Origin: Siphonodentalium dalli
Lineage: Eukaryota; Mollusca; Scaphopoda; Gadilida; Siphonodentaliidae
Direction of reading: 5' to 3'
NCBI GenBank assembly: GCA_032622095.1
Contig: CP136066.1
Span: forward strand, 175,831,164 to 175,895,163
Length of the DNA stretch: 64,000 nt
Every line of letters begins with the position of its first letter. Position 1 is the stretch's first letter. The position numbers and the translations under genes are program-made. Under the pieces are notes generated by a model. The model was not told the origin of the DNA, searched no databases, and saw only the letters and a list, made by a program, of their open reading frames with translations. Of the stretch, positions 6,216 to 49,592 are shown piece after piece.

Positions 6216-8168
6216 ATGGAGTCCTTGTCACGAAGTTATAACCGGATTCTGCTGCAAAGTCATGCCAGTAGAGAAACAACACGTCTGTCGACTGATCGTT
6301 ATCAAGTTACATTAGTAGGGAGCGCCGCGAGCGGAGTTTATATTACAGGAAGCGATCGAGATATTCTGATCGAACCTCGAAACATAATAATAGATGAATC
6401 CAGCTTGAGATACCGACATGACCTCCCATGTTATGTCCGGATATCTACTGAGGGGTTAGCTGGGCTCGTACCAAGCGTTCTCTTGGGTGACGGGGAATAC
6501 GTGCTGGCTGATCCCATCAGAGACATGCGTGAAGAGATCTTTGGAGGAACTATAGAGGCTGATGGATTATCAAAGGTTGGTATGATACTCGAAGGTGGAT
6601 CCATCACAACCGACGTTGTTCCACAACTAAGAATAAGTAGAATACCACAGACAGCACGCTTATTTTCCACACGTGACCGGTCATGGCCATCGGACCACAT
6701 TATATCGCTAATTAGCTCCGGGGAATTCCACCTTGCGGCACGACCTGCTCCATCAGACCCGGACAGTGGGCACGATTTCTGTCTGTCGTTCGCTAAGGCA
6801 GAAGTCGTGCTGTTGAGAACAATGTCAGTTAACCAGATACTCAGTATAAAGCTTTTGAAAGCAATCCGACACGACATTAATTTTGGCCGGGTAGTGTTGA
6901 CGTCCTACCATCTGAAAACGTCAGCTCTCTGGCATTTCGAGCAGACGGACGCTCGATTCTGGGAAAATGACGTATCAGTAGTGGATATATTAAAGAGACT
7001 TGATCAGTATTTAAAAGGAAGATTCCTACCTCATTATTTTGTTCCTGAAATGAACTTGTTGACTGGTGTCTCGGAATCTGATCTTATATATATCCGGATA
7101 CGTCTGTGGTCTCTTCTCGGGTTGTTTATCATCACTGATGATATCGCGGGAATGACACCACACACAAGGCTGAATCTCACATGTTTTATATTTGATAATT
7201 TAAGTAGACAACTCTCTGAAACAAAGCCTGCTATCACGCAGACGGTTCATATGTCTCATATCAGGAACACCATAGAAGCAGCAGAGGTCATGTATGGAAC
7301 CGGCATTCTATCCCATGACATGAAACAACGAGTATCCGCATCTTTATTGGTGAGGTTTTCAATCCATGCAGTCAGTAGCCAGCATATAGACGAAGTTAAA
7401 TCATGTCTGACGTCAGTTAATAAGACGGTTGATCTTTGGATGTATTCTAGACAACATGAATATAGTTCATATGCCGACTTTGTTGCATATATGTCTATAA
7501 TTGTGGATTCAAATAAGGACCCTTTAAAAGATTTCTTCGTGATAACATCGACAGGTAAAAATAAAGGAGGCCGTCGTGCCGCCAGAAGAGCATTACGAAA
7601 ATCAGAAAAAATAATGAATAAATGGTTGGCTTTTGTCGATGATGTCATTACCAAGTTACAATCATACGGGAACATTGTTGCTGATCAAGTGTCACGTGAT
7701 ATCTCACACAAGTCACGTTGTGACAGCCGCATGAGCGGCAATCGATGCGAGGAAAATGTCGACCAACTTTCCTATAAAATTACCAAAGAGTTGCTAACGT
7801 TTGCATTCGATCATATTGGAAAGTTCAGTTATCCTCTCGATAATGACACTTATTCCTTCAGGCCGGAGCCAGTCGGCGACTTCGGTGGAAACATTGTCAT
7901 ATTATATGATGTTATCGAGAGAATGTTCCTCAACGTTGAGTATGCTCTCGTTATGAGCGCTCGGGCCAAGACATCTCGCGGATCATGTGATCAGACGGGA
8001 AGAATAAAGCGAACGATGAATCCTGAGAGTCTAGAATATCGATGTTACTTGGCGTTGTTAGCTTTAATCAGGGTGCTGGGTGAATTCTACATGTTGTGTT
8101 CTGTGTCAAGTGAGCATCACGGATGGAATTACTGGCCGCCACATTCCGCCGAGAGAATTGTTAGGTAA
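6216..8168 (+). CDS. Mab-21 / cGAS-like nucleotidyltransferase, paralogue 1 (650 aa)
   Basis: Probable cytosolic nucleotidyltransferase of the Mab-21/cGAS-like receptor (cGLR) family. Known family members sense nucleic acid or other ligands and make a cyclic dinucleotide, while some Mab-21 proteins are catalytically silent. The NTase signature is visible: LVGSAASG with the Gly-Ser at residues 35-36, the metal-binding pair D47 and D49 in GSDRDI, and a third acidic residue D133 in TTDVVPQLRI. The C-terminal Mab-21 helical half spans about 225-290 with SYHLKTSALWHFE and LPHYFVPEMNLL. Residues 300-650 form a long tail of unknown function with a Lys/Arg-rich patch at 447-462. No cGAS-type zinc-thumb cluster is apparent. 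The start has A at -3 and G at +4. It is one coding exon, about 12 residues shorter near the N terminus than paralogue 2. Family assignment is firm; ligand and product are unknown. Confidence 0.9.
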   Translation: MESLSRSYNRILLQSHASRETTRLSTDRYQVTLVGSAASGVYITGSDRDILIEPRNIIIDESSLRYRHDLPCYVRISTEGLAGLVPSVLLGDGEYVLADPIRDMREEIFGGTIEADGLSKVGMILEGGSITTDVVPQLRISRIPQTARLFSTRDRSWPSDHIISLISSGEFHLAARPAPSDPDSGHDFCLSFAKAEVVLLRTMSVNQILSIKLLKAIRHDINFGRVVLTSYHLKTSALWHFEQTDARFWENDVSVVDILKRLDQYLKGRFLPHYFVPEMNLLTGVSESDLIYIRIRLWSLLGLFIITDDIAGMTPHTRLNLTCFIFDNLSRQLSETKPAITQTVHMSHIRNTIEAAEVMYGTGILSHDMKQRVSASLLVRFSIHAVSSQHIDEVKSCLTSVNKTVDLWMYSRQHEYSSYADFVAYMSIIVDSNKDPLKDFFVITSTGKNKGGRRAARRALRKSEKIMNKWLAFVDDVITKLQSYGNIVADQVSRDISHKSRCDSRMSGNRCEENVDQLSYKITKELLTFAFDHIGKFSYPLDNDTYSFRPEPVGDFGGNIVILYDVIERMFLNVEYALVMSARAKTSRGSCDQTGRIKRTMNPESLEYRCYLALLALIRVLGEFYMLCSVSSEHHGWNYWPPHSAERIVR

Positions 8169-8712
8169 ACTTCTACGCCATTGAAGCTGAATGCGAAACA
8201 TGATCACACATAAACTCGAGGAAGGAACTAACTGTTTTCCAAGGCGACAATGTTTATACCATGCATTTGTCGATGCTGTTTAGAACATACATCATTTTGT
8301 GCAAAAAAATCAAAACAGGCTGTATATAATACAAGTGGATATGCTTCGAGTCAGAACTGTATCTTGTCAAACTCAGTGATTTTGATACTGCCCTCAGATT
8401 TACACCAGATTTGACTACCAACATTCACAGGTACCATAAATGTATATACGATTCACAGACAACCTGAATCGACAGAATCATGATATAGATTACAGAAATC
8501 AATAGAATATAAAGAATATTTTATTTCACCAGAAATTTCTTACTCATAGTATCACCCAATCAACTGGCAGTGTTTTATGTTGGTTCGAGATACCCTGTAA
8601 ATTTAATAAGGGGCATATTTCACCTTATAGAGTAACCATAGTTACCACACACACGCACACGCACACCCACTGCATCGAGTTGGACAACTATATCCATCAA
8701 CAGGTATCAAAG
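8169..8712. other. 3' flank of gene 1, shared with gene 2
   Basis: Similarity to the gene 2 downstream flank (49593-50181) continues through CATTGAAGCTGAATG, CACATAAACTCG, TTGGTTCGA(G/T)ATACCCTG and AGTAACCATAGTTACCACAC. Gene 2's flank is longer through local tandem duplications. No clear AATAAA signal was identified close to the stop codon. A short CA-rich run is at 8647-8668. Confidence 0.6.
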
Positions 8713-9105
8713 ATGGATGGAACTCATGTTCTCACGTTTCATGGTCCGAGAGCAAAAAAATCCTTATCTCGCAATGTGCCTATACGTTTGGCACAACTAT
8801 TGAACAAAACATCATACGATAACCAAACAACGTGCTCCCACTGCCGCGAAACATTCTCCAATCTAGTGTTGCACATGTACAACGACTTTTCCATCTTCGC
8901 TCAGGAAAGACGCAACTCATTCTGGTACTTTGTTATTGCTTGTTATATAATTGATATGTTCAATATTTTGGAAAGATTGAGTGATGAAACGTTTCTTGCG
9001 TACTGTTTTGATGGATGCATAAGCACTGCGGTTAACTTAGTTTGCAACGAAGAACAACTCTTCAGATCCTGCATTCGATTTATCTTCGAATTATGGGCGA
9101 GTTGA
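8713..9105 (+). CDS. Small ORF (130 aa) of uncertain nature, possible LINE C-terminal relic
   Basis: Open from ATG at 8713 (MDGTHVLTFHG) to TGA. Residues about 42-60 carry a Cys-x2-Cys...His arrangement (CSHCRETFSNLVLHMYND), followed by QERRNSFWYF and a final LFRSCIRFIFELW. That order resembles the cysteine-rich end of non-LTR retrotransposon ORF2 proteins, but the match is from memory of the family and is weak. The leader and first codons (AAGATGGATGGAAC) recur twice downstream of gene 2 (ATGs at 50182 and 50342), where reading stops early or diverges, so this may instead be a gene start carried in the duplicated cassette. No recognised domain; function unknown. Confidence 0.35.
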   Translation: MDGTHVLTFHGPRAKKSLSRNVPIRLAQLLNKTSYDNQTTCSHCRETFSNLVLHMYNDFSIFAQERRNSFWYFVIACYIIDMFNILERLSDETFLAYCFDGCISTAVNLVCNEEQLFRSCIRFIFELWAS

Positions 9106-10361
9106 CTCAGTTGAGTATTCTTTCATCTCCCGTCGATACGGTCTGGAGTGAATAGTTAACCTCTACATACACATATTCCGGCTTTCCCCAAGTCACTAAA
9201 TTCCGTTTAATCATTTACGTGATTTCTCAGGAATATAATTATACAGCTTATTACTATGATATAATCTAGAGGGGGGGGGGGTCTGCAAAATAATCTTCCG
9301 TATATAGGGCCGGGGTGGGTGGGTGGTCCAGTGGCCGAAAAAATAGTGCTTGTAAATATTTTCCAAAATGGGTTTTTTTTCAAACAATTTACAAGTACTG
9401 ACCATGTAATGTTGTATATAGGCATGTTAGTACCATGCTTGTTGGTATATGGCTATATATGCAGCTAAACTGACTCTTTAGCCTCAGATTTAGCAACATT
9501 CTGGATTTTACAGGATCCCGGACCACTTCACAGTGGACCACCGTAATATCGTTCAGGAAACTTATGATCAATGGAAGAAATATTTAGTAACAAAATTAAT
9601 ATATTACCCAGTTGTATACCTGAATAAAAGTAATAAAACAAATAAACTGTATCACAAATTGGATACTACATGATGAATATTCAATGATGACTAGATATCA
9701 TTAACCTGATTGTTGCATAACATGCAATTGAAAAGGGTATCTCATAAATTTCTAATGTCTGAAATACTGTCTTGTTCTGGCATGTAATCAAATTAATTCC
9801 TTCTGGTTATTTCTCATATTGAATGATTGCAAGTAATGTTAATTTGCAACAATTATCCAAATAAAACTGAATTGGTTATGATGAATGACCGTTACTGTTT
9901 ACTGCTCAGACAATCCCAACTGAAGGTGACGCTATTCTCATTGAATTTCCGAACTTTATCTTGGAGCTTTACTGCTCAACAAGACTAAACTAAAATACTA
10001 ATTGTATACTGTTATCACTTACAAATAGATGAACTGAAATAATGTGATGCATTCAGATGCATTGAGAAATGACATTCAATTCTTCATTCTGGTCTATCAC
10101 CATTCCAAACCACATCAAAATTCGACAACCGACACTTTACTTATATTGCAAAAACGTTGTACGGACTAAATTTCATAAAGTCGAACAGGGCCCATAACTC
10201 TGGTAGGCATTGATGGTCACAACCCGTGATATTATGCATATTCGTTCCCCATTTCTGGCCCGTCACCATGCCATAGGGCATCAAAATATGACAACCGACT
10301 CTTGAGTTATAATGCAAAATGTTTGTACGGACGGACGGCTCGAAACGACAACTATATACCC
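9106..10361. other. Non-coding stretch with a G-rich tract
   Basis: No supportable gene. A G-run at 9270-9281 is followed by GGCCGGGGTGGGTGGGTGG (9308-9326), resembling the stretch at 23800-23910. At 10150-10340 a fragment with CCATAACTCTGGTAGGCAT and a CGGACGGACGG tail looks like a dispersed retro-repeat. The rest is plain AT-rich DNA. Confidence 0.5.
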
Positions 10362-10690
10362 GCACTGCCAAAAATAATTTCTTAATAAGATAAAATATCT
10401 TGAAACAAGAAAAACTATTTCCTGAAACAGGAAAATAAATCTTATTTTGGGAAATATTCCCCCCAAGTCTGCTACATCAAGAAAATTTAAGAAACTCCCA
10501 CCAGACAAGAGATAGTTTTCTCAAATAAGATAGATTTTAGTCTTGAAACAAGAAACAATTTCCTTACTAAGAAAATGACTTCAAAAATTAAATATATATT
10601 TCTTGTTTCAAGATTTTTTTTCTAAGTTAAGAAATACTTAAAGAAAATATTTCTAAACCAAGAATTAATTGTTATGTAGAAATTACTGCT
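10362..10690. repeat. AAGAAA-rich dispersed repeat, copy 1
   Basis: Begins CACTGCCAAAAATAATTTC and continues with many degenerate TTCTTGAAACAAGAAAA palindromes. The terminus matches, in reverse orientation, the end of the similar stretch 22870-23411 (ATATTTTTGGCAGGGCG). Probably ends of one transposon family; class not determined. Confidence 0.5.
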
Positions 10691-10729
10691 GTATTGGAAT
10701 AACTAAAAGTCCAACGAGAGCAAAATTGT

Positions 10730-11040
10730 GATCAAAATTTTATGGTAAACATTGAAAAAGGTCCAACCAGACCAACCTGTTGATTAAATATTCTGAAAAT
10801 TCATATTCATACTTAAATATTTGAACTACATGTAATACTACAGCTATAGGATTATATAATTGTTGACAAGTCACTCACTGTAACAGTTTTGTTTACATAA
10901 CATTGGAAAAGGTCAAACCTGTTGATTAAATATTCTGAAAATGTTATTCATAGTTAAATATTTGAACTAATAATACAGCTAGAATTATATGTTTGTTGAC
11001 AAATCACTGTAACAGTTTTGTTTACATAACAATAGTTTCA
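10730..11040. repeat. Two tandem copies of a ~155-bp repeat
   Basis: The blocks 10740-10911 and 10912-11035 share CTGTTGATTAAATATTCTGA, AATATTTGAACTA and GTAACAGTTTTGTTTACATA. A third diverged copy is at 19560-19715. Confidence 0.7.
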
Positions 11041-11299
11041 ACAGATGTAATTTTGTTGTTGGCAATCTGTCAGTAAGTGTTTTTATCTATTTCTCAATGC
11101 TCTTAGGGCATGCTGACCTTTATACAATTTTAATAAAATTTTGTTTGCACAATATAGTGGGTCGCCATTGAGGAGATCTAGAGCTCCCTTGAAATCTCCA
11201 AATGGCGGTTTGCCACACCATCCCGAACTAGACAAACCTCTCTGGTGGCCCCTTGCATTGAACCTATTAATTAAACCGGTATATACCCCTCTTATATAA

Positions 11300-13160
11300 G
11301 GATGGAAGATGCTACCAATTTCAAACCGATGGTATTTATTCAGAGTTGACTCTCTTGTATTATGAAAGCAAGCACAATGAGGCCATGCACCTATTGTATG
11401 TTTATAACACACAAAAGACTATATAATAGCAGAATGCTAATATCTCTGATGATACAAACAATAAAATATCCAATTTATCCATAGTTGAATTTCATTTGGC
11501 TATATAGGAAAGCATACAATGTGGCTTTTATGTAGTTTCCACAAAGTATTTTAAGTAAAATATCCATCAAGTGATGTATTCTGCCTTGTCCTATATATTA
11601 AAATGCATGCAATGGTCATGAGAAATGCTTAATTTGTGGTAGAGATGTCCATCTGATAAGAAATACTGACATTTTAGGTTTGATACACCATTTCAGCCGG
11701 CTTGGCATCTTTTAAATTTGAAACCTAAGGGAATTTATTCAGCTTTGACTCTCTAAATTATGGAAGAAAGCCCAAATGAAGCCACTATGTGCATGTTAAT
11801 AACATGTATAAGGCTATATATCTCAACAGAATACATGTCTCTGATAAAATGCACAATAAAATATCCATAGTTCAATTGCATTTGTCTATAGAGGGATGCA
11901 TACAATATTGCTTTTATGTAGTTTCCACAGACTATTTTAAGTAAAATATCCATCAAATGATGTTTTCTACATAGCCTTGTATATTAAAATGCATGTAATG
12001 ACCATGGGAAATGTTTAATTCATTAGTTGATATGTCCATCTGATAAGAAATACTGACATTTGAGGTTTAAAATACCATTTCATGGGATTATGGGATCATA
12101 AATATAAAACTAAGGGAATTTCTTCAGATTTTACTCTCTAAATAATGGAAGAAAGCCCAAATGAAGCCACAATTTGCATGTTAATCACATGTATAAGGCT
12201 ATATCTCAACAGAATACACGTCTCTGATAAAATACACAATAAAATACCCATAGTTTAATTTCATTTGGCTGTAGAGGGATGCATACAATATTGCTTTTAT
12301 GTAGTTTCCACAGACTATTTTAAGTAAAATATCCATCAAATGATGTTTTCTACCTTGGTCTATATATTATAATGCATGCAGTGACCATGAGAAATGTTTA
12401 ATTTATTGGTAGAGATGTCCATCTGATAAGAAATACTGTCATTTGAGGTTTGATACACCATTTCAGCTGGCTTGGCATCTTGTAAATTTGAAATAAGGGA
12501 ATCTCTTCTGGTTTGACTCTCTAAATTATGGAAGCAAGCCCAAATGAAGCCACTATTTGCATGTTTATAACATATATAAGGCAATATCTCAACAGAATAC
12601 ATGTCTCTGGTGAAATAAACAATAAAATATCCATAGTTTAATTTATTTTGGCTACACAGGGATGCATACAATATGGCTTTTAGGTTGTTTCCACAGACTA
12701 TTTTAAGTAAAATATCCATCAAATGATGTTTTCTACCTTGTCTTGTATATTATAATGCATGCAATGACTATGAGAAATGTTTAATTTATTGGTAGAGATG
12801 TCCATCTGATAAGAAGTACTAATATTTGATGTTTGTGACATCAACTCACAGGGCCAGGCATGCTACAACTTTCAAACTAAGAGAATTTCCTCACGTTTGA
12901 CTCACTAAATGATGGAAGTTAGCCCAACTGAAGCAACTATTTGCATGTTTATAATGTATAAGGCTATATCTTTGCAGAAGGCATGTCTCTGATAATAAAA
13001 ATAATAACATGTCTATAGTTCATAGTTCAGTTGGTTAGACAGGGTGCATAAAATATGGCTTTAAGTATAGTTTTCACAAACTAGAAATTCTAGAATATCT
13101 ATAAAATGATGTAACCTGCCTTGCTGTGTATTTAAAATTCATGCAATAGCCTGATAACTG
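11300..13160. repeat. ~384-bp tandem satellite, about 4.7 units
   Basis: The anchor GCATGCAATGACCATGAGAA and variants occur near 11605, 11991, 12373, 12757 and 13139, giving a period of 382-386 bp. Other recurring blocks are CATCTGATAAGAAATACTGA, GACTCTCTAAATTATGGAAG and CCACAGACTATTTTAAGTAA. Minus-strand ORFs (11753-11956, 12360-12722) are copies of one repeat-derived frame and are not supported as genes. Confidence 0.9.
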
Positions 13161-13179
13161 TTCAGTTCATTGGCAAGCC

Positions 13180-13310
13180 TTGTAAGCCAGTGCATTCTTT
13201 TATATATGATACGAGGCTTCATGTGGATGACTCACATATATAAGAGAATGCTCTAGCATATGGTCTGTTAAGACTTTAATGCTGCACCAGCGCAATTCCC
13301 GCCATGGTCA
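13180..13310. repeat. Fragment related to the piggyBac-like MITE at 19301-19539
   Basis: Shares CAGTGCATTCTTTTATATAT, GAGGCTTCATGTG, CACATATATAAGAGAATGC and TGCACCAGCGCAATTCCCGC(C)ATG with 19430-19535. The outer end with TTAA is not recognisable here. Confidence 0.6.
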
Positions 13311-13349
13311 TATATATATATGGGGGAGGCCCTTTTCACATTTATTATT

Positions 13350-13510
13350 TATTTACGCTTGAGCGAAAATATTTGCGCTTAAGCACACATATTTGCGCTC
13401 AAGCACACATATTGCGCTTAAGTTCAAATAACCTCTATCATTTGGGCTTAAGCGCAAATGTTTATGCCTAAGCGAAAATCATTTGCGCTTAAGCGCAAAT
13501 GAAAAATAAT
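13350..13510. repeat. Tandem palindromic GCGCTTAAGCGC repeats
   Basis: Seven or eight degenerate copies of the palindrome ATTTGCGCTTAAGCGCAAAT are spaced roughly every 18-22 bases. The perfect form is at 13482-13501. No gene is nearby. Confidence 0.8.
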
Positions 13511-14482
13511 ATGCATTGACCCCCCCCCCCCCGAATTAATTTTAAATGACACAGGCCAAAACACATCACTCAAGTCTATATAGGCCCACCATCTGAGTAA
13601 TCCCTAGATACCTTTTATGAACATGCAAATTATATAGGTCTGTGTGCAGAACATGTCCCTTTTATAAAATATACTAGATTTCTGGGATGGACGAAATTGA
13701 AAATCACAACTACACCTTTTACTGAACTCGGACTCGGACTACAACTTTTATTGTGTCCGCCATTCGGTCACGCCTGTCCTGTTCGTCAGCCATTTTGACA
13801 AAATACATTTTTCGAGATCGGAAATGAACAGATGAACTCCATTTGATCTGATTTTTCAGGTAAGTAAACTGTTGTAAAGTGTTTTCTCTTTACGAAAATG
13901 TTGTTACGAGTGATATACTTAATTGAACTACGATTACACGTGCGTGATTTATTCATATTTTACAAATGAAATGATGGTGAATTTTAATGTCGGTGAAATA
14001 TGTACGAGATTTTAGAATTCGCTCAATCTGCTTGTATTTGTTATGATTTCTCATGTTAAAATAGTAACATCTGATGGACTATGATTATATGGCATTGATC
14101 ATTCGTATATAAATGTACCCATCCACAATATTCGCAAAACTGGGAAACTTTGCAAAATCGGTTTTTATTAAATCATATTTTGTGCTTAATTTCTACGATA
14201 AATAAAAGTAAAGTATTCCGTAACCCGCGTGAGTGGCAAATTTTACTCTGCAAAAATCAAATTTTGGCATAAAGCTATGCATAATTGCTCTGAATTATCG
14301 GTCGAGATTAATATGACAATAGTTGGAAAACAGAAAGGTCACAATTATTGAAAATATAACTTAAAAGGCAATTGTATATAAAGGTACTTCTTCATAGAAT
14401 AATTTTTAACAAATGTGAACCTGATAATATTAAAAATAAAATGCCCATTCATTCTAGTTATTGTGTGGCCAATTCAACACTA
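13511..14482. other. Non-coding, nothing definite
   Basis: AT-rich DNA without a supportable ORF. The phrase ACACCTTTTACTGAACTCGG at 13713 recurs in variant form at 34651-34670, suggesting one old dispersed repeat. Confidence 0.4.
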
Positions 14483-15241: not shown

Positions 15242-15755
15242 GGTTGAATGAACTTTACACTTTGTTTATAAATATGTTTGCAAATTATAAAAATACATGT
15301 ATCGATATCACATACATGTATATGCAGCATATTTTTCTTCTTATTACAGAAATGCCAGATTCATTAGCCACGGTCATTGTTATGGAACTACAGTACCGTG
15401 TAGTTATGATACACCAAAAGATATCACACCAAAAGTTGAAAATTAATACAACCACACGGATATCGTTAAATTAACTTATATATGCATGAATAGACGAATC
15501 ACTATCTTGTATTTCCATGCCTGTTGGTGTAATGCCAATCAATGCGGCCTGACAACAGGCGATGGGTGGAGTTTAAAAATTGACACCATAAACAATGTCG
15601 GCAACTTCAAAGTTCATGGTGTGCTACATTTAACCCCCTACTTGTATATACTATTTACAAATTTTCTATCAAGCATTCCCATTGCTTATAGAAAGTATAG
15701 TTGGAAAAATAGACGAAAATGGCCATATTATGATCAGGGGGTCAGAAAATATGTT
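15242..15755. other. Non-coding, nothing definite
   Basis: Short ORFs (15190-15474, 15486-15896) lack recognisable motifs and overlap repeats. A small microsatellite-like ACATGTAT cluster is near 15295-15320. Confidence 0.4.
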
Positions 15756-22250: not shown

Positions 22251-22254
22251 TTAA

Positions 22255-22747
22255 AGGTACGGGAGGCCTTGGCGGTGGGTATGCTGTGAAAATATTTCCA
22301 CCGGTCATAAACCGCCACAAACAGAAAGAATATTAAAATGTAGACAGACTTTGTCCGTATACAAATAAGAAATATCGCATAAACAGTATGTTATTGTCAT
22401 ATGTTTGACCATTCTTATGTAAACAAAAGCATAAAAAGGTACTTTCCTGGTGTTTGTTTATATTATGATGGTAAACATAAAGAGCGTTCATTGTTGCTGA
22501 ATTTAGATATGGAACGAATAAAGAGCATTTATATCATTTGTGTGTGATTAGCCAGTAACACTGTGCTGCCTTCTGTAACACAATCAGGCTCCTGCTTAGG
22601 TAAAATATAGTAGGTCTTTATGATAGCATGCTGTTTACGCGATGGTCATGGTATATATGAACAAAACTGTATGCGTTTTAATGTTTTTCTGTTTACGGTG
22701 ATTGAAACAAATATGAATATTTTCGACAACTAAGGCCTCCCGTGCCT
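22255..22747 (+). mobile_element. TTAA-flanked MITE, complete (493 bp)
   Basis: TIRs AGGTACGGGAGGCCTT and its mirror AAGGCCTCCCGTGCCT differ at one of 16 positions and sit inside TTAA (22251-22254, 22748-22751). Nearly the same sequence occurs at 59506-59999 and, inverted and cut, at 1-342. Non-coding; Kolobok- or piggyBac-like by target site. Confidence 0.85.
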
Positions 22748-35675: not shown

Positions 35676-38393
35676 TCGATGAGAATCAATGAGACGTACA
35701 CAACACTTAATAAGAGATAACTCATCACAGTTATAATAACGAGAATCAATGAGACATACATAATACTTAATACGAGAAAAGTCGGCACAGCTATGATAAT
35801 GAGAATCAATGAGACCTACACAATACTTAATAAAAGATAACTCGTCACAATTATGATAATGAGAATCAATGAGATCTACACAATACTTAATCAAAGATAA
35901 CTCGTCACAATTATGATAATGAGAATCAATGAGACATACATAATACTTAATAAAAGATAACTCGTCACAATTATGATAATGAAAATCAATGAGACCTACA
36001 CAATATTTAATAAAAGATAACTCATCACAATTATGATAATGAGAATCAATGATACCTACACAATATTTAATAAGAGATAACTCATCACAGTTATGATAAT
36101 GAGAATCAATGAGACATACATAATACTTAATAAAAGATAACTCGTCACAATTATGATAATGAGAATCAATGAGACATAAACAATACTCAATAAAAGAAAA
36201 CTCGTCACAATTATAATAATGGGAATCAATGAGACCTACACAATACTTAATAAGAGATAACTCATCACAATTATGATAATGAGAATCAATGAGACCTACA
36301 CAATACTTAATAAGAGATAACTCATCACAATTATGATAATGATAATCAATGATACATACATAATAATTAATAAGAGATAACTCGTAACAATTATGATAAT
36401 GAGAATCAATGAGACCTACACAATACTTAATAAGAGATAACTCATCACAATTATAATAATGAGAATCAATGAGACCTACACAATACTTAATAAGAGATAA
36501 CTCATCACAATTATAATAATGAGAATCAATGAGACATACACAATACTTAATAAGAGATAACTCATCACAATTATGATAATGATAATCAATGAGACATACA
36601 TAATAATTAATAAGAGATAATTCGTAACAATTAGGATAATGAGAATCATTGAGACCTACACAATACTTAATAAGAGATAACTCATCACAATTATGATATG
36701 AGAATCAATGAGACCTACACAATAACTAATAAGAGATAACTAATCACAATTATAATGATAATAAATGAGACCCACACAATACTTAATAAGATAATAACTC
36801 GTCACAATTATGATAATGATAATTAATGAGACCTACACAATACTTAATAAGAGATAACTCATCACAATTATGATATGAGAATCAATGAGACCTACACAAT
36901 AACTAATAAGAGATAACTCATCACAATTATAATGATAATAAATGAGACCCACACAATACTTAATAAGAGAAAAGTCGTCACAATTATGATAATGATAATC
37001 AATGAGATCTACATAATACTTAATAAGAGATAACTCATCACAATTATAATAATGAGAATCAATGAGACCTACACAATACTTAATAAGAGATAACTCATCA
37101 CAATTATAATAATGAGAATCAATGAGACCTACACAATACTTAATAAGAGATAACTCGTCACAATTATGATAATGATAATCAATGAGACATACATAACAAT
37201 TAATAAGAGATAATTCGTAACAATTAGGATAATGAGAATCATTGAGACCTACACAATACTTAATAAGAGATAACTCATCACAATTATGATATGAGAATCA
37301 ATGAGACCTACACAATAACTAATAAGAGATAACTCATCACAATTATAATGATAATAAATGAGACCCACACAATACTTAATAAGATAATAACTCGTCACAA
37401 TTATGATAATGAGAATTAATGAGACCTACACAATACTTAATAAGAGATAACTCATCACAATTATGATATGAGAATCAATGAGACCTACACAATAACTAAT
37501 AAGAGATAACTCATCACAATTATAATGATAATAAATGAGACCCACACAATACTTAATAAGAGAAAAGTCGTCACAATTATGATAATGATAATCAATGAGA
37601 TCTACATAATACTTAATAAGAGATAACTCATCACAATTATAATAATGAGAATCAATGAGACCTACACAATACTTAATAAGAGATAACTCATCACAATTAT
37701 AATAATGAGAATCAATGAGACCTACACAATGCTATATAAGAGATAACTCATCACAGTTATACTAATGAGAATCAATGAGACCTACACAATACTTGGTAGA
37801 AGATAACTTATCACAATTATGATGATGAAAATCAATGAGACCTACTTAATATTTAATAAGAGATAACTCATCACACCCATGACAATGAAAATCAATGATA
37901 TATACACAATAATTAATAAGTGATAACTCATCACAATTATGACAATGAGAATCAATGAGTCCCACACAATAATTAATAAAAGATAACTCGTCACAATTAT
38001 GATAATGAGAATCAATGAGACCCACATAATACTTAATAAGAGATAACTCATCACAATTAGGATAATGAGAATCAATGAGACCTACACAGTGCTTAATAAA
38101 AGATAACTCGTCATAATTATGATAATGAGAATCAATGAGACATACACAATACTTAATAAGAGATAACTCGTCACAATTATGAAAATCAGAATCAATGAGA
38201 TCTACACAATAGTTAATAAAAGAAAACTCGTAACAATTATAATAATGGGAATCAATGAGACCAACACAATACTTATTAAGAGATAACTCGTCACAATTAT
38301 GATAATGTGAATCAATGGGATCCAATCAATACTTAATAAGAGATAACTCATCACATTTATGATAATGAGAATCAATGAGTCCTACACAATATA
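35676..38393. repeat. 60-bp minisatellite, array 2 (about 45 units)
   Basis: Same unit as array 1. Irregular units occur at 36690-37560 (59-bp and shorter variants such as GATATGAGAATC and AATGATAATAAATGAGACCC). A block of about 593 bp is directly repeated: the private variant AATTCGTAACAATTAGGATA is at 36618 and 37211, and GAAAAGTCGTCACAATTATG at about 36967 and 37561. It stops at the Helitron and resumes as array 3. Confidence 0.95.
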
Positions 38394-38420: not shown

Positions 38421-38461
<41 letters not shown>

Positions 38462-39715: not shown

Positions 39716-39900
39716 GGGGGGGGCTTGGGGAGGGGGTGCTTAATTGGTGTATATCCCCAACTTTGGTCAAAATGTTCAACTGTTACAAATTTCTTATCTT
39801 ACAATAGATTGGTTTGAAATTTAACACCAACAATATGTTGAAATTGTTCTCTTAATTTGATTTGACAACAATTTAATAGTGGGGATTTTGTCGTTCTTAG
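39716..39900. repeat. Dispersed repeat, paired with 54985-55135
   Basis: Shares ATCCCCAACTTTGGTCAA-like sequence, TTTCAACTGTT, CAATATGTTGAAATTGTTCTC, ATTTAATAGTGGGGATTTT with the 54985 copy. A G-run precedes it (39710-39723). Confidence 0.6.
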
Positions 39901-41144: not shown

Positions 41145-41600
41145 GTTCGATCGGCCCGGAAACATGTCTATATGAGCGAATATGGTCAAGGTCAAGGACA
41201 TGGTCGCACGTGAAATTGGACCCACCCATATTGTTCCCGGGATCAAAGTAGGCCTACATTATACCAAATTTGAGTCGGATTGGTCGAGGTCCAGAAACAT
41301 GCCTATATGAGCGTATATGAGCGAGGTCAAGGCCAAGGACACGGTCGCAAGTGAAATTGGACCCGCCCATATTGTTCTCGTGATCAAAGTAGAACCAGCT
41401 ACCAAATTTGAGTGGGATCGGCTGAGGTCCAGAAACATGCCTATATGAGCGTATTTGAGCGAGGTCAAGGACACGGACGCACGTGAAATTGGACCCGCCC
41501 CGGATCAAAGTAGGCCTACACACCAAATTTGAGTCGGATCGGTCGAGCAGTTTTTCGAGTCTATAACACAGATACATACATACAGACAGAAGTTCCAAAA
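41145..41600. repeat. Tandem ~130-bp retro-repeat units with tail
   Basis: Three units contain ATGCCTATATGAGCGTAT, GAGGTCAAGGACACGG and GTGAAATTGGACCC(G/A)CCCATA. The last ends in AAATTTGAGTCGGATCGGTC and a CATACATACAGACAGA tail, which resembles a SINE/LINE 3' end. The minus-strand ORFs over it are repeat-derived. Confidence 0.65.
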
Positions 41601-43902
41601 TATATAATAGCTAAAATACACGACAGATAACTCTATATATCCCGTCTACGCTCACGCTTTACGAAGTCCAGCGCAATGAAATTTCACTATTGTTAACCGG
41701 CTGTTGTCTCATGGAAATGTCAGGCCTGTAAAACGAGCTGGCGACTTTCTGAATTTTTATAGGCGTAACACAGCCTATTGGATAAGCATAGAAAGGCAGT
41801 GTAATTCGTCGAAATTAATGACAAGTGGTGCAAATTTCAACTTAATGCATAGTTTGTTGTGTTTATCTTTGTATACTTTCACAAAATTGGCAGTTTGAAC
41901 CATGTACCATGGCAAATATTAGCAATAGTTTTACCCGTATAGAACGATTAATGAGGATAGAACCGACTCGATCAGGAGAGAACCCAAACAATAATCAAAA
42001 TTCGCGGTTCTTGTCGTTGTTATGACTCGCACAGTGAATTTTTCGTTATTAACACGCTCATTGGTGCCACAGATTGTTATGGGATCGAAAATAACTAATC
42101 GAATTATCACCTGGATGCCTCAAAATTGCGTTTTAACTGTCAAAAAGTCGTGAAAATGTATAATTTCGATCAGCAAGAACCGTCACAAATCAGGCAAGAA
42201 CCATCACAAACCGGCGATAGAACGATTTCCGATGTAACAGTTCCTACACAGTGCTATCAAAGTGGTGTTGGAAATAGGCGCTAAATTAATGTGTCAGTTC
42301 AGGTTCAGTGTGAATTTAGGTAACGAATGTTGATTTTATCGCGGAAGTGCATGTATAGTGGGGTGTAGAGTGAAGACTCGAACGTTCTACCGTCGTTGGG
42401 AATGGGTGGATGTAGCGGGGTGCAGAGTCAAGACTCAAACGTTCATCGTTGGGAATGGGTGCTAATATGGTATTTTAATTTGCCAGTTGGGTTTGAACAT
42501 AAACATGTGTATTGAGTGTGGAATCGAATGAGTACCGATATACACGGAAGATGGCGAATGGACACAGTCTGACCTCCCGCCAGTGGGTAGCGTGAACTCA
42601 GTAAATTCACCGGAACTCAGTTAGAAAAATCACATTCCCGGGACAGGCCTAATAATAGGGCACACACAGTGTAAACAATACTGCCAACACTAATTAATGC
42701 TCTGTTAATCTTTCGGTTGAGTGTAAATCTGATAAAAGAATAAATGTTTAAAAGATCAAAATGTGCGCGAAGCGCACGCAGTTTAAATCCATATATAATG
42801 TGCGCAAAGCTCACTGCAGACCCCCCCGCTATATAAAGGTTCCGAATTGAGCCTGTTTCAGTTAGAATAGATAAAGTAAAATATCTTGATTGTTGCGTTC
42901 CATATGTGCATGCATATACGTGGGTTGGGGAGATGATGGTGGGGGCAAAAATACAGATTTATTGAAATAAAATGTTCATAAAAATGGGCCGCGCAGTTCA
43001 GGGCGTGTGATCATTAGGCTGCATGCTGAATACAGGTTCCAAAGGGGTCCGTTTAAAATGTGATGCAAGCTCCCTATATCTGCGCGAAGCTCACGCAGTT
43101 TAAGATCATATAATGTGCGCGAAGCGCAGAAAGGGGCTGTAGGCCCCTCCCCCGCTAAATAAAGTCTCCCGAATTTAGCCTGTTTCAGTATAGATAAAGT
43201 AAACTATTTTGATTGTTGCCTTCCATATGTGCATGCATATACATGGGTTGGGGAGATGGGGGTGGGGGTAAAAATACAGTTTTATTGAAATAAAGTGTTC
43301 ATACAAAGGGGCCGCGCAGTGCAGGCGTGTGCTCATTAGGCGGCATGCTGAATACAGGTTCCAAGGGGGTCCGTTCAAAACGTGAAGCAAGCTCCCGAAT
43401 GAAGGTTCCTGAATTGAGTATGTTTCAGTTGGTGCATAGTAGCATTTAAATAATATACTGATTTTGTTTCGTTCAAAATGTGCATGCGCACATGTGGACT
43501 TGGTATGTAGAAATACAATTTTAGTGAAATAAAGTGTTCATACAAATGGGCCGCGCAGTGCATGCGTGTGCTCATTAGGCGGCATGCTGAATACAGGTTC
43601 CAAAGGGGATCCGTTCAAAACGTGAAGTAAGCTCCCGAATGAAGGTTCCTGAATTGAGTATGCTTCAGTTGGTGCATAGTAAATAATTTTAAATAATATA
43701 CTGATTTTGTTACGTTCAATATGTGCATGCGCATATGTGGACTGGGCATGTAGAATTACAGTTTAGTAAAATAAAGTGTTCCAACTCGCATCCAGTAACA
43801 AAAAAGAGAAGCATGACCATTCCATGTGTCCATGAACGCGAACACTAGAAAATAACAAAGAACATTTATATACCCGTCATTTTGTGACGGGCAACCCCCT
43901 AG

Positions 43903-45687
43903 TATATATATACAACCCGTCGTCTGTGTGTGTGTATGTGAGGGTGTATCTGTGTGTGTGTGTGTGTGTATAACTCGGTCACGCTTTTGGCGCGTTTATA
44001 ACTTTTTAACCATGCGTCCAATGTGGCCCAAATTTGTACCACGGCCTATAGTGTGTCATAAAATATATAGTGTGTCACCAAATTTCACGCCGATTGGTCC
44101 AAGCAAACCTGAGATCTAACATGGCCCCCAAATGCAGTATCTGCACTCAAGTAGACACTATTTCTTATGACGTTTGTCCAAATGACGTCATTGACGTCGA
44201 ACGCAGTACAACACTTGCTTTGCTATTGTAGGCGAAACTTCCATGCGCTCAACCAAAGCGTTGTTGGAAATAAGCGCTAAATTAATGTGTCAGTTCAAGT
44301 TCATTGTGAATTTAGATAACGAATGTTGATTTTGACGCGGAAGTACATGTATAGTGGGGTGTAGTCAAGACTCGAACGTTCTACCGCCGTTGGGAATGGG
44401 TGGATGTAGTGGGTGCAGAGTCAAGACTCGAACGTTCGTCGTTGGGCATGGGTTGGTATTTTAATTTGCCAGTTGGTTTTAAACAAAAGTAAATAATACT
44501 GTCTTTGATACGAAAGTTGTGCATTGAATGTAGTATCGAAGGAGTACCGGTATACACGGAAGATGGCGAATGGACAGTCTGGCCTCCCGCCAGTGGGTAC
44601 CGTGAACTCAGTAAATTCGCCAAACTGAGTTAGAAAAATCACATTCCCGGGACAGGCCTAATAATAGGGCATACAGTGTAAACAATACTGCGACGCTAAT
44701 TAATGTTCTTTTAATATTTCGGTTGAGCGCAAATCTGATAAAAGAATAAATGTTTAAAAGATCACAATGTGCGCGAAGCGCACGCAGTTTAAATTCATAT
44801 AATGTGCGCGAAGCTTACTAAGGAGCTGCAGACCCCTCCCCCGCTAAATAAAGGTTCCGAATAGAGCCTGTTTCAGTTAGTAGGCCCTATAGATAAAGTA
44901 AAATATCTTGATTGTTGCGTTCCATATGTGCATGCATATACGTGTGTTGGGGAGATGATGGTGGGGGCAAAAATACAGTTTTATTGAAATAAAGTGTTCA
45001 TACAAATGGCCCGCGCAGTGCAGGGCGTGTGATCATTAGGCTGCATGCTGAATACAGGTTCCAAAGGGGGTCCGTTTAAAATGTGCTGCAAGCTCCCTAT
45101 GTGTGCGCGAAGCTCACACCGTTTAAGGTCATATAATGTGCGCGATGCGCAGAAAGGGTTGTAGACCCCTCCCCGCTAAATAAAGTCTCCCGAATTGAGC
45201 CTGTTTCAGTAGGCCTATAGATAAAGTACAATATTTTGATTGTTGCGTTCCATATGTGCATGCATACACATGGGTTGGGGAGATGTGGGTGGGGGTAAAA
45301 AATACAATTTTATTGAAAAGTGTTCATACCAATGGATCGCACAGTGCAGGCGTATGATAATTAGGCGGCATGCGGAATACAGGTTCCAAAGTGGGTCCGT
45401 TCAAAATGTGCAACAAGCTCCCGAATAAAGGCTCCTGAATTGAGTATGTTTCAGTTGGTGCATTGTAGTATTTAAATAATATACCGATTTTGTTTCGTTC
45501 AATATGTGCATGCGCATATGTAGACTGGGTGTGTAGAAATACAGTTTTAGTGAAATAAAGTGTTCCAACGAGCATAAAGTAACAAACAAAGAGAAGCATG
45601 ACCATTCCATGTGTCCATGAAAGCGGACACTAGAAAATAACAAAGAACATTTATATACCCGTCATTTAGTGACGGGCAACACCCTAG
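43903..45687 (+). mobile_element. Helitron-like non-autonomous element B, tandem with A
   Basis: Starts directly after the CTAG of element A with TATATATACAACCCGTCG and ends CCCGTCA-TTTAG-TGACGGG, CAACACC, CTAG, T (45659-45688). It aligns with element A throughout (for example ATAACTCGGTCACGCTTTTG at 43972 and 38468) but lacks the hAT-like insertion. The expected 5' TC is not present at its start, as if copied through from A. Its interior tandem units match those of A. Confidence 0.8.
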
Positions 45688-46240
45688 TAAATAATAAAAG
45701 ACAACTCGTCACAATTATGATAATGAGAATTAATGAGACCAACACAATAATTAATAAATGATTACTCGTCACAATTATGATACTGGGAATCAATGAGACC
45801 TACACAATACTTAATAAGAGATAACTCATCACAATTATGATAATGAGAATCAATGAGACCTACACAGTACTTAATAAGAGATAACTCATCACAATTATGA
45901 TAGTGGGAATCAATGAGACCTACACAAATCTTACTGAGAGATTACTCGTCACAATTATAATAATGAGAATCAATGAGACCTACACAATACTTAATAAGAG
46001 ATAACTCAACACAATTATGATAATGAGAATCAATGAGACCTACACAATACTTAATAAGAGATAACTCAACAAAATTATGATAATGAGAATCAATGAGACC
46101 TACACAATAATTAATAAAAGATAACTCGTCACAATTATGATAATGAGAATTAATGAGACCTACACAATAATTAATAAAAGATATCTCGTCACAATTATGA
46201 TATTGAGAATCAATGAGACATACGCAACACTTAATACGAG
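45688..46240. repeat. 60-bp minisatellite, array 3 (about 9 units)
   Basis: Continues array 2 on the far side of the Helitrons. It ends in TTAATACGAGAGAAGTAGGAG, the same boundary as array 1 (TTAATAAGAGAGAAGTAAGTAG at 1726), after which unique flank of the duplicated cassette begins. Confidence 0.95.
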
Positions 46241-46689
46241 AGAAGTAGGAGAAGAACAAAATGGATACATATGCTTTTTGAAACAATTACTGTCTGATGA
46301 AACCAGAAGTATCTAACCAGTGCAGCTAGTCACGCGATGGTATACAGTCTAATATATCACACCCCATACATGTTAATATGCAGTATGCAGTTCACATTTG
46401 AAACCACGTCTGTTTTACAGCATCTGATCGTATTGGTGCCTGAGAACGGTGAAGTTAAAGATAATTTTCATGTTAACAAAGTTTAGAAAATGGGGTTATA
46501 ATTTCCAACAGGTCGATGGTTCTTCAATATATATTCACAGTAATCGATAGTACTAAATTAAAAAAATAAATTACAGACATATATTATATATACTGATTAT
46601 CCCACCCCGATTCATAAAAGACCATCGTTAACACCCTTAAGTAATCTGATGATATGAAATTAGAGATGAGTAGGAAACATATATACACT
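46241..46689. other. Upstream flank of Mab-21-like gene 2
   Basis: Alignable to 1736-1811 plus 5454-5995 (ATGGATA(A/C)ATATGCTTTT, GGGGTTATAATTTCC, TATACTGATTATCCCA). It holds the uninterrupted target of the Harbinger-like element at about 46315. No gene. Confidence 0.7.
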
Positions 46690-46714
46690 ATTTACAACAT
46701 AGTCATCTTCATCG

Positions 46715-46746
<32 letters not shown>

Positions 46747-47398
46747 GTCATCATCATCGTCATCATCATCATTGTCAACTTAATCAACACAATAATCGCC
46801 ATCTGTATCATGCTAATCGTCATCATTATCATCATCATCCATCATCATCATCCTCATCATCATAATCATAATCACCATAATCATAATCAACATCATCATC
46901 ATCATCAGCATCACCATCGTCGTCTACGTTGTCATCACCACCATCATCATCGGCAGAACCCGCCATCGGCATTATCGTCATTGTCATCGCCAATATCACC
47001 ACTATCCTGCAGTAGTCATCGTCATCACCATCATCATCGTCTTCGTCGTGGTCGCTGCCATCATCGTCCTCAACTATCTCCATCAGGACCATCGGCGTCA
47101 TCAACACACGTCGATCGATCATCGTCATCATCATCATCATCAGCAGCAGGAGCCGAAGCATCGTCATCATCATAATCATCACCATGCATCATCATCTTTA
47201 TCATCACCACTATCATTCAATCATCATCAATGTCAACGTACTTGCCATTTCATGCATCACCATCGTCCTCATCTTAATCATCGCCATCATCGTCATCGTC
47301 GTTATCATCATCTTTGTTATCATCATCGTTTTTGTCATCGTCATTATTATCGTCATCGAGGTCATAATCCTCGATATCATCACCGTCGTTATTAGTCG
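46690..47398. repeat. ATC/CAT-rich microsatellite region in the gene 2 leader
   Basis: About 700 bp of imperfect (ATC)n/(CAT)n, purest at 46706-46770, interrupted by CG-containing triplets. Cassette 1 has no equivalent between its matching flanks (about 5995 and 6050). ORFs in all + frames and one minus frame (His-, Ser-, Ile- or Asp-runs) are consequences of the triplet repeat. It probably lies in the intron upstream of the acceptor at 47457. Confidence 0.9.
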
Positions 47399-47445
47399 AT
47401 CCTTTGCAGTCCTATGTTAACATCCAAATATCATCGTTATATTCA

Positions 47446-47457
47446 TTTTTGTTTCAG
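47446..47457 (+). promoter_or_regulatory. Probable 3' splice site upstream of Mab-21-like gene 2
   Basis: TTTTTGTTTCAG then AAAGACGACATG, the same junction as at 6081 in cassette 1, with a polypyrimidine run in both. It is unaffected by the ATC expansion that lies just upstream. Confidence 0.5.
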
Positions 47458-47466
47458 AAAGACGAC

Positions 47467-47523
47467 ATGTTATTTATTTCCCACTCACGTGATCTGAAAA
47501 CAGTATTGGATGTCCGACATTGA
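47467..47523 (+). CDS. Conserved 18-codon upstream ORF of Mab-21-like gene 2
   Basis: Encodes MLFISHSRDLKTVLDVRH and stops at TGA, 80 bases before the main start. Length and frame equal those of the cassette 1 uORF; the replacements are Glu/Asp, Asn/Lys, Lys/Thr and Gln/Arg. Coding status is inferred only from this conservation. Confidence 0.4.
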   Translation: MLFISHSRDLKTVLDVRH

Positions 47524-47603
47524 CAGGTGTACTAATACTGACACCATCGTCTTAAAATTGACACACCAAGGGGTCGTCAGAGTAAAGTATCCATTTACCA
47601 ATT

Positions 47604-49592
47604 ATGGCGTCCTCGTCACGAAGTCTGTGCAGTGAGGACTCACATGAGCTATCTCTACGTTATAAACGGATTCTGCTGCAACATCATATCAGTAGACGTG
47701 CGGCACGTCGGTCGACTGATCGTTATAAAACGACATTAGTAGGGAGCGCCGCGAGCGGAATTGACACTACAAGAAGTGATGTAGATATTCTGTTCGAACC
47801 TCGAAACATAATAATAGATGAATCCAGTTTGAGATACCGACATGACCTCCCGTGTTATGTCCGGATATCTACTGAGGGATTAGCTGGTCTCGTACCAAAC
47901 GTCATCTTGGGTGACGGGAAATACGTGCTGGCTGATCCCATCAGAGACATGTGTGAAGAGATCTTTGGACAAACTAACGATGCTGATGGATTATCAAAGG
48001 TTGGTAAGGTATTCAATGTGCTACACATCACCAGCGACGCTGTTCCACAACTACGAATCAGTGGTATTCCACAGACAGCACGCTTATTTTCCACACGCGA
48101 CCGGTCATGGCCATCAGACGATATTATATCGATAATTAGTACCGGGGAATTCCACCTTGCGGCACGACCTGCTCCATCAGACCCGGACAGCGAGCACGAT
48201 TTCTGTCTGTCGTTCGCTAAGGCAGAAGTCGTGCTGTTGAGAACAATGTCAGTTAACCAGAAACTCAGTATAAAGCTTTTGAAGATAATCGGACGCGTCG
48301 TCGATTTTGGCCGGGGAGTGTTGACGTCCTACCATCTGAAGACGTCAGCTCTCTGGCATTTCGAGCAGACGGACGCTCCATTCTGGGAAAATGACATATC
48401 AGTAGTGGCTATATTAAAGAGACTTGATCAGTATTTAAAAGAAAGATTCCTGCCTCATTATTTTGTTCCTGAAATGAACTTGTTGACTGGTGTCTCGGAA
48501 TCTGATCTGATATACCTCCGCAGGCGTCTGTGGTCTCTTCTCGGGTTGTTTATCGTCACTGATGATATCGCGGGAATGACATCAGACACAAGGATGTGGC
48601 TCGCTTGTTTTGTCAGTAACTGTTGTCATCTCTTTGAAACCAACCAGAACAATACGCAGACGGGTCATATGTCTAATATCGGGAACATACTCGAGGCAGC
48701 AGAGGTCATGTATGGAATCGGGATTGTATCCCATAATTTCATGAAACATCGAATATCCGCATCTGTAGTGACGAGGATCCCAACCTGTGCAGTCAGACGC
48801 CACTATGTCGACGAAGTTAAATCATTGCTTCTGCCATTTAATAAGACGGTTGATCTTTGGATTCGTTCTAGACAATTTGACTATTTTGGATTTGACCAAT
48901 TTGTTGACGCTTTGTCTGACATCATGACTTCGACTGCGGAACCTTTAGAAGAGTTCTTCGTGATCAGATCGGCAGGTAAAAATAAAGGGGGCCGTCGTGC
49001 TGTACAAATATTGCGAAAACCAGAAATTATAATGAATAAATGGTTAGATTTCATCGATGATATCATTACCAAGTTTCAACGATACGGGAACATTGTTGCC
49101 GACCAAGTTTTACGTGGTATGTCACATAACTCACGTGGTGACAGCCGAGTAAGCAGCAATCTGTGCGAGGAAAACATCTACAAAGTTCTTAATAAAATTA
49201 CCAAAGAGTTGCTAACGTTTGCAGTCGGGCATATTGAAACTTTCAGCTATCCTCTCGATAATAATGACAACTATTCATTCAGGCCGGTGCTAGTCAGCGA
49301 CTGTCGGGCAAACAATTTCATAATACATGATGTTATCGATAGACTTTTCCTTAACGTCGAGTACGCTCTCGTTACGAGCGGTCGGATCAAGGCATCTGGT
49401 GGATCAGGTGATCAGAAGGGAAGAATAATGCGAACGATGAATCCTGAGAGTCCAGAATATCGATGTTACTCGGCGCTCATATGTTTGTGCAAGGTGATTA
49501 ATCAATTCGACGTGTTGTGTTCAGTGTCAGTTGAGCAACAAACTTGGATGGAATTCATTGCCGCCACATTCCGCCGAGAGCATTGTTCGTAA
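47604..49592 (+). CDS. Mab-21 / cGAS-like nucleotidyltransferase, paralogue 2 (662 aa)
   Basis: Paralogue of the protein at 6216-8168 with the same layout and predicted role (cGLR-type cytosolic nucleotidyltransferase). The NTase signature is LVGSAASG with Gly-Ser at 47-48, D59 and D61 in RSDVDILFE, and D145 in TSDAVPQLRI. The Mab-21 helical half is at about 237-302 with SYHLKTSALWHFE and LPHYFVPEMNLL. The C-terminal tail (about 315-662) includes a Lys/Arg-rich patch at 458-472. It has 12 extra residues near the N terminus compared with paralogue 1. The two proteins are close through the catalytic core but clearly diverged around 320-450. The start has A at -3 and G at +4. It is one uninterrupted coding exon with no sign of decay. 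Enzymatic activity and ligand are not shown by the sequence. Confidence 0.9.
   Translation: MASSSRSLCSEDSHELSLRYKRILLQHHISRRAARRSTDRYKTTLVGSAASGIDTTRSDVDILFEPRNIIIDESSLRYRHDLPCYVRISTEGLAGLVPNVILGDGKYVLADPIRDMCEEIFGQTNDADGLSKVGKVFNVLHITSDAVPQLRISGIPQTARLFSTRDRSWPSDDIISIISTGEFHLAARPAPSDPDSEHDFCLSFAKAEVVLLRTMSVNQKLSIKLLKIIGRVVDFGRGVLTSYHLKTSALWHFEQTDAPFWENDISVVAILKRLDQYLKERFLPHYFVPEMNLLTGVSESDLIYLRRRLWSLLGLFIVTDDIAGMTSDTRMWLACFVSNCCHLFETNQNNTQTGHMSNIGNILEAAEVMYGIGIVSHNFMKHRISASVVTRIPTCAVRRHYVDEVKSLLLPFNKTVDLWIRSRQFDYFGFDQFVDALSDIMTSTAEPLEEFFVIRSAGKNKGGRRAVQILRKPEIIMNKWLDFIDDIITKFQRYGNIVADQVLRGMSHNSRGDSRVSSNLCEENIYKVLNKITKELLTFAVGHIETFSYPLDNNDNYSFRPVLVSDCRANNFIIHDVIDRLFLNVEYALVTSGRIKASGGSGDQKGRIMRTMNPESPEYRCYSALICLCKVINQFDVLCSVSVEQQTWMEFIAATFRREHCS

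What the first reader, a model, noticed from the sequence alone, without database searches (positions are those of the whole stretch)
6216..49592. Pair of intact Mab-21/cGAS-like nucleotidyltransferase genes 41 kb apart in repeat-choked DNA
Both ORFs keep the Gly-Ser loop, three acidic catalytic positions and the Mab-21 motif LPHYFVPEMNLL, with no stops, although everything around them is decaying repeats. That implies selection on both. They also carry a tail of about 350 residues beyond the recognised core, with a basic patch, which may bind ligand or a partner. Family-level role is established knowledge; a specific immune role here is inference.
Basis: partly seen in the sequence, partly recalled or inferred. 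Interest (0 to 1): 0.75.

Follow-up and report, generated by a model that had tools for sequence, protein, structure and literature searches.

The report
Duplicated cGAS-like enzyme genes, fast-changing tails
Two neighbouring copies of an animal gene related to the immune sensor cGAS are both still readable; part of the enzyme is held nearly constant while an unfamiliar tail of about 340 amino acids changes quickly, as one might expect of immune sensors, though no immune role is shown here.

Summary
The two genes are real: 6216-8168 (650 aa) and 47604-49592 (662 aa), 71% identical. Both pass Pfam's cut-offs for both Mab-21 domains; the best solved relative is a cGAS-like receptor (8gjy, E=5e-15). 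They were copied as one DNA block (leader, coding exon, flanks). Yet simulated neutral change almost always breaks the frames (0 of 2000 stay open; 6 and 4 of 2000 at half load), and the average hides two regimes with a step at residue 314 (0 of 1000 permutations). Residues 150-312 change less than flanking DNA; residues 313-450 change more. Positive selection is suggested, not shown: within the tail pN does not differ from pS. The published strict cGLR motif fails in both copies, and copy 1 has DRD where copy 2 has DVD. The tail has no Pfam or PDB relative and structure prediction failed. I file them as new members of the expanded animal Mab-21/cGLR family; an immune role is plausible, not shown.

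The parts
6216..8168 (+). Copy 1: Mab-21/cGAS-like nucleotidyltransferase ORF, 650 aa plus stop
   Evidence: in-frame TAA at 6195 upstream, A at -3 and G at +4 of the ATG
47604..49592 (+). Copy 2: Mab-21/cGAS-like nucleotidyltransferase ORF, 662 aa plus stop
   Evidence: in-frame TAA at 47583 upstream
6318..6362 (+). Copy 1 GS loop (G35 S36) and D47-R48-D49
   Evidence: weak general NTase matches over residues 22-56
47742..47786 (+). Copy 2 GS loop (G47 S48) and D59-V60-D61
   Evidence: weak general NTase matches over residues 22-68
6612..6614 (+). Copy 1 third catalytic Asp (D133)
   Evidence: aligned to Asp of 8gjy, 7lt1, 8gjw
48036..48038 (+). Copy 2 third catalytic Asp (D145)
   Evidence: aligned through the profile of both copies to Asp of 8gjy, 7lt1, 8gjw
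7026..7061 (+). Copy 1 LPHYFVPEMNLL within the Mab-21 C-terminal domain
48450..48485 (+). Copy 2 LPHYFVPEMNLL within the Mab-21 C-terminal domain
7152..8165 (+). Copy 1 tail, residues 313-650, no Pfam or PDB match, fast-changing; basic GKNKGGRRA at 7554-7580
   Evidence: weak PADLOC PDC-M10B row at residues 319-406, E=0.007
48576..49589 (+). Copy 2 tail, residues 325-662, no PDB match and no Pfam match better than E=0.1; basic GKNKGGRRA at 48975-49001
6037..6215 (+). Copy 1 upstream stretch shared with copy 2 (47415-47603), with a splice-acceptor-like TTTCAG ending at 6081 (copy 2: 47457)
   Evidence: the splice site itself is inference from sequence
1732..1811 (+). Copy 1 leader fragment next to the 60-bp array, matching 46238-46316 beside copy 2
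1812..5450 (.). 3639-bp DNA-transposon-like insert in copy 1's leader: 42-bp perfect terminal inverted repeats, TAA target duplication; copy 2 has the empty site
8497..8723 (+). Copy 1 3' flank shared with copy 2 (49958-50192, 73.8%), reliable only to about 8619

Best explanation
They are two paralogous animal cGAS-like (Mab-21) nucleotidyltransferases made by segmental DNA duplication. Shown: the family by sequence, open frames, a shared duplicated block, and two evolutionary regimes with a step at residue 314. Inferred: the core is a ligand-switched nucleotidyltransferase, probably making a (cyclic) nucleotide messenger, and the 338-residue tail, probably mostly helical, is the diversifying sensor or partner-binding module that decides what switches it on. 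Nucleic-acid sensing through the core is less likely because the core is acidic.
For: Mab-21 and Mab-21_C above cut-off; 8gjy, 7lt1 (MB21D2), 8gjw, 7lt2 and MAB21L1 as relatives; three acidic positions kept in both. Open frames against simulation. Residues 150-312: pN 0.055 against 0.133 in flanks, p=2.3e-5. Residues 313-450: pN 0.264, p=5.9e-7 with the cleaned flank set, p=0.00025 with the wider one. Step at residue 314, 0 of 1000 permutations, while neutral sites show none (776 of 1000). Cyclase activity, ligand sensing and >200 genes in some bivalves are established for the family (PMC9980059, passages); cGAS and OAS1 evolve fast in primates (PMC4420275, abstract).
Against: Strict cGLR motif not met in either copy; copy 1 also fails the loose motif. 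Whole-gene likelihood omega is 0.98 and tail omega 1.05, neither different from one. Within the tail pN does not differ from pS (p=0.57; p=0.33 for 313-450) or from four-fold sites (p=0.38), and the excess over flanks shrinks to p=0.018 for the whole tail when all aligned flank is used. pS is also higher in tail than core (p=0.018), so local recombination with another relative could contribute. No usable structure.
Confidence: 0.45

Rival explanations
1. Catalytically silent Mab-21 scaffolds: the domain and tail act by protein binding, as reported for shrimp Mab21 proteins that bind IKK-epsilon and do not make messenger molecules.
For: Altered motif, DRD in copy 1; no NTase-specific match for the N-terminal part in PDB; shrimp precedent (PMC12928593, passages); MAB21L1 crystallised in an inactive form without seen NTase activity (PMC4897736, passages).
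Against: All three acidic positions and GS are kept in both copies although pN around them is 0.19 in residues 1-62 and 113-149; the shrimp proteins are said to lack essential NTase residues.
Confidence: 0.25
2. Relaxed or dying duplicates: both drift near neutrality and are open only because the loss of function is recent, with most constraint acting earlier.
For: Overall omega 0.98; changes spread 126/98/117 over codon positions; frame shift of the last 14 or so codons.
Against: 0 of 2000 neutral simulations with all differences on one copy stayed open; 6 and 4 of 2000 with half the load on each; core 150-312 well below flank rate.
Confidence: 0.12
3. The tail's high divergence comes from recombination or gene conversion with a third, more distant paralogue rather than from selection.
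For: pS is higher in tail than core (p=0.018); 51 multi-change codons among 319 in the tail against 21 of 312 in the core; a 68-base identical run in the coding alignment is rarer than chance (2 of 5000 permutations), as conversion of the core would give, though constraint would too.
Against: No change point at neutral sites (776 of 1000 permutations reach it); 3' and 5' flank differ equally (26/190 and 74/562). That rests on leaving out 8620-8723 as misaligned; with it the 3' flank is 70/311.
Confidence: 0.3

Closest known systems
cGAS-like receptors (cGLRs) of animals, e.g. the PDB chains 8gjy and 8gjw
   Same: Mab-21 NTase and C-terminal helical domain, third Asp, PHYF-type motif
   Different: Motif reads VGS, and DRD in copy 1; acidic core (pI 5.9 and 6.6); 338-residue tail without a Pfam match. 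In PMC9980059 87% of cGLRs carry no appended signalling domain (passage)
MB21D2 (7lt1)
   Same: Second-best PDB match, E=3.6e-8, third Asp aligned; an orphan with no known ligand (passage)
   Different: The match covers residues 122-292 only; no similarity seen in the tail
MAB21L1/2 (5eog)
   Same: Same domain, E=0.00069; no zinc thumb in either (passage; no generic zinc pattern in either core)
   Different: MAB21L1 is a conserved single-domain developmental protein; these genes are duplicated and change fast
CgcGAS of the Pacific oyster
   Same: Mab-21 protein of similar length (590 aa), in a mollusc (PMC8218723, passages)
   Different: It is reported with three zinc-finger domains; none found here by Pfam

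Membership tests
Mab-21 domain / cGLR superfamily (by clade and PF03281) | Match to Pfam Mab-21 (PF03281) above its curated cut-off | tested here: met
   27.0 and 24.6 bits against 24.1; narrow for copy 2
Mab-21 domain / cGLR superfamily (by clade and PF03281) | C-terminal helix bundle (PF20266) | tested here: met
   51.5 and 50.2 bits against 24.1
Mab-21 domain / cGLR superfamily (by clade and PF03281) | Position in a family tree | not tested
   No animal sequences beyond PDB chains could be fetched; 3 viral and 1 prokaryote scan gave no relative
Catalytically complete cGLR (PMC9980059) | Strict motif h[QT]GS X8-20 [DE]h[DE]h X50-90 h[DE]h | tested here: not met
   V instead of Q/T before GS in both copies
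Catalytically complete cGLR (PMC9980059) | Looser methods criterion: G[S/G] loop and [E/D]h[E/D] X50-90 [E/D] | tested here: inconclusive
   Copy 2 meets it, copy 1 does not (DRD); the loose motif also turns up in 649-925 of 5000 shuffled cores
Catalytically complete cGLR (PMC9980059) | Predicted structural homology to cGAS / CD-NTases | tested here: inconclusive
   Model unusable, mean pLDDT 34.4 from a two-row alignment
[quoted passage not shown]
   Needs a biochemical assay
Nucleic-acid-sensing cGLR | High isoelectric point (>8.5) with a long basic surface (as I read a cut passage of PMC9980059) | tested here: not met
   Core pI 5.86 and 6.56, whole protein 7.33 and 7.02; only copy 1's tail reaches 8.84. 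The basic surface itself was not testable without a model
cGAS proper | Zinc thumb in the core | tested here: not met
   No generic C/H zinc pattern in either core; the one pattern found is in copy 2's tail at residue 377

The most novel reading that the evidence does not exclude
A modular receptor family in which a constant Mab-21 nucleotidyltransferase core is kept while the C-terminal domain, of a fold not yet described, diversifies between tandem paralogues under positive selection, so that each copy senses a different ligand and feeds one messenger pathway.
Probability: 0.2. Interest if true: 0.7.

Novelty: new member of a known kind. Interest (0 to 1): 0.36.

Why it matters
Most expanded animal cGLRs have no known ligand; the published screen names this as its main limit (PMC9980059, passage). 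If the tail is the variable recognition module, it tells experimenters where in the protein to look for ligand specificity. If not, the pair is one more ordinary case of duplication in a family with more than 200 members in some bivalves.

Tried and rejected
Whole genome of the window: none held, so species, orthologues and copy number are unknown; I call it an animal only because Mab-21 proteins are almost entirely metazoan (PMC10732462, passages). Relatives were sought in viral contigs three times (no pattern match; 76 and 86 pattern matches, none a relative) and in prokaryote genomes once (30 pattern matches, none a relative). NCBIfam gave no useful match (none for copy 1, MntA antitoxin E=0.16 for copy 2). 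PADLOC gave PDC-S09 on the NTase motif of copy 2 (E=0.003) and PDC-M10B on copy 1's tail, residues 319-406 (E=0.007, not seen in copy 2), which I treat as weak.

Structure: full-length model pLDDT 34.4; tail model pLDDT 48.1, pTM 0.49, 22 of 351 residues at 70 or more. Foldseek with the tail model gave 0 matches at E<=0.001, best 0.22. I draw nothing from these beyond 'probably helical'.

An apparent step in neutral divergence between left and right halves (96/811 against 97/497, p=0.00021) was rejected after I left out two stretches: the flank 8620-8723, which looked misaligned, and codons from 8119 on, which are in different frames in the two copies. Then no step remained. The 3' flank window 8169-8260 was also cut to 8236 there.

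Codon-likelihood tests: of 11 segments only residues 378-437 (omega 3.04, p=0.02, uncorrected, chosen after seeing the sliding windows) fell below 0.05; I do not count it as positive selection.

Other genes: I scanned 10 of 187 kept stop-to-stop frames of 60 aa or more with Pfam; none matched better than E=0.05. Rfam and ARAGORN found nothing. Papers: passages only of PMC9980059, PMC10732462, PMC12928593, PMC9334734, PMC8218723, PMC1784063 and PMC4897736; abstract and section list of PMC4420275; the rest as listings.
Full report
OBSERVATION. The window holds two long single-exon ORFs on the + strand, 6216-8168 and 47604-49592. They are 71% identical over 636 columns and are the only Mab-21 sequence in the window at E<0.1 by tblastn. 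Each passes Pfam's cut-offs for the Mab-21 nucleotidyltransferase domain and the Mab-21 C-terminal domain. Against solved structures copy 1 finds cGAS-like receptors 8gjy (E=5.4e-15) and 8gjw, MB21D2, another Mab-21 protein (7lt2) and MAB21L1; a profile of both copies finds the same five. So the family call is right.

ACTIVE SITE. GS, two acidic residues as DxD, and a third Asp are present in both. The third Asp is aligned with Asp in the three PDB hits that cover it. The first two rest on weak but co-located matches: NTP_transf_2 for copy 1 (E=0.005), MTPAP-like palm for both (0.0055 and 0.00065), DUF4269 for copy 2 (0.037), MntA for copy 2 (0.16) and PDC-S09 for copy 2 (0.003). Copy 1 has Arg between the two Asps, copy 2 Val. 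The strict motif used to define complete cGLRs (PMC9980059, passages) fails in both because V precedes GS; the looser form is met by copy 2 only, and shuffled cores match that form often. That some active nucleotidyltransferases have a polar residue between the Asps is recalled, not tested.

HOW THE PAIR AROSE. The copies share more than the coding exon. A leader of about 80 bp at the end of a 60-bp tandem array (1732-1811 against 46238-46316, 90%), an upstream stretch with a splice-acceptor-like TTTCAG (ending at 6081 and 47457), and 3' flank to at least about 8619 are homologous. This is a DNA block duplication, not a retrocopy. In copy 1 the leader is split by a 3639-bp insert (1812-5450) with 42-bp perfect terminal inverted repeats and a TAA duplication; copy 2 has the undivided site, so the insertion came after the duplication.

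SELECTION. Differences at aligned coding bases number 341 (148 transitions, 193 transversions). Dropped at random on either copy they leave a stop-free frame in 0 of 2000 runs; with half of them, in 6 and 4 of 2000. So both frames have been kept by selection for at least much of their history. The mean rate nevertheless looks neutral: omega 0.98 by likelihood (p=0.90 against 1), with changes spread 126/98/117 over codon positions. All-site divergence steps from 101/942 to 208/954 at residue 314 (0 of 1000 permutations), while neutral sites (flanks and degenerate third positions) show no step (776 of 1000). Against flank divergence of 100/752, residues 150-312 have pN 0.055 (p=2.3e-5) and residues 63-112 0.053 (p=0.013): constraint. 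Residues 313-450 have 0.264 (p=5.9e-7): faster than flank. Residues 451-550, which include part of the basic patch region's helix, have 0.147, not different from flank, with pS 0.310. With the larger, less clean flank set (144/873) the same contrasts give p=1.5e-8 for 150-312 and 0.00025 for 313-450, and 0.018 for the whole tail.

LIMITS OF THAT. Within the tail pN does not differ from pS (p=0.57), nor from four-fold sites (13/79, p=0.38); it exceeds same-residue degenerate sites (26/185) at p=0.03. pS itself is higher in tail than core (p=0.018). So the tail is certainly not strongly constrained, and positive selection or recombination with another relative are both open. The comparison has two sequences only. 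The flank set was trimmed after a first pass gave a different picture, as told under tried and rejected.

TAIL. 338 residues in each copy. Pfam gives no row for copy 1's tail and only a 10-residue Xin repeat at E=0.12 for copy 2's; PDB gives none for copy 2's tail at E<=10. A weak PADLOC row (PDC-M10B, E=0.007) touches copy 1's tail at 319-406 and not copy 2's. The predicted model is poor (mean pLDDT 48.1) but mostly helical, with the better-scored part in its second half, and it matches no solved fold. GKNKGGRRA is identical in both tails.

MECHANISM. Most likely, in my judgement: a Mab-21 nucleotidyltransferase whose activity is gated by ligand or partner, with the tail as the variable part. 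The acidic cores (pI 5.9 and 6.6) speak against long-nucleic-acid sensing by the core. Family precedent covers both messenger synthesis (PMC9980059) and messenger-free signalling (shrimp Mab21, PMC12928593), so a scaffold role is a serious rival. Faster change in immune nucleotidyltransferases has a known parallel in primate cGAS and OAS1 (PMC4420275, abstract).

NOVELTY. Animal cGLRs are known to have expanded to more than 200 in some bivalves, and 13% carry extra domains by the 87% figure of PMC9980059. I could not compare with animal protein databases, so I cannot say this tail is new. The pair is filed as new members of a known kind.

Noticed in passing
window 1812-5450: 3639-bp transposon-like insert with 42-bp perfect terminal inverted repeats and TAA target duplication, with the empty site preserved beside copy 2. 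PIF/Harbinger-like by its TAA duplication, from recall.
   Followed up: partly
window 2941-3847 and 4003-4919: Large inverted repeat (87.5% over 942 columns) made of about 165-bp tandem units with G-rich and C-rich runs, nested in that insert.
   Followed up: no
window 343-1736, 35679-38391, 45692-46241: The same 60-bp tandem repeat in three arrays (23, 45 and 9 copies); two of them stand upstream of the two genes.
   Followed up: partly
window 1-346, 22251-22595, 59502-59847: Dispersed repeat, 91-92% identical over 346 bp to the copy at 1-346; the latter two extend to about 500 bp at 90%.
   Followed up: no
window 60054-61100: 79-bp tandem array, 13 copies at 96%, open in several frames (339, 322 and 246 aa ORFs) but purely repetitive.
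   Followed up: no
window 46703-47358: CAT/ATC microsatellite of about 650 bp just upstream of copy 2, giving a spurious 173-aa ORF.
   Followed up: no
window 52873-53367 (-): 164-aa ORF without a significant Pfam match (best E=0.055).
   Followed up: partly
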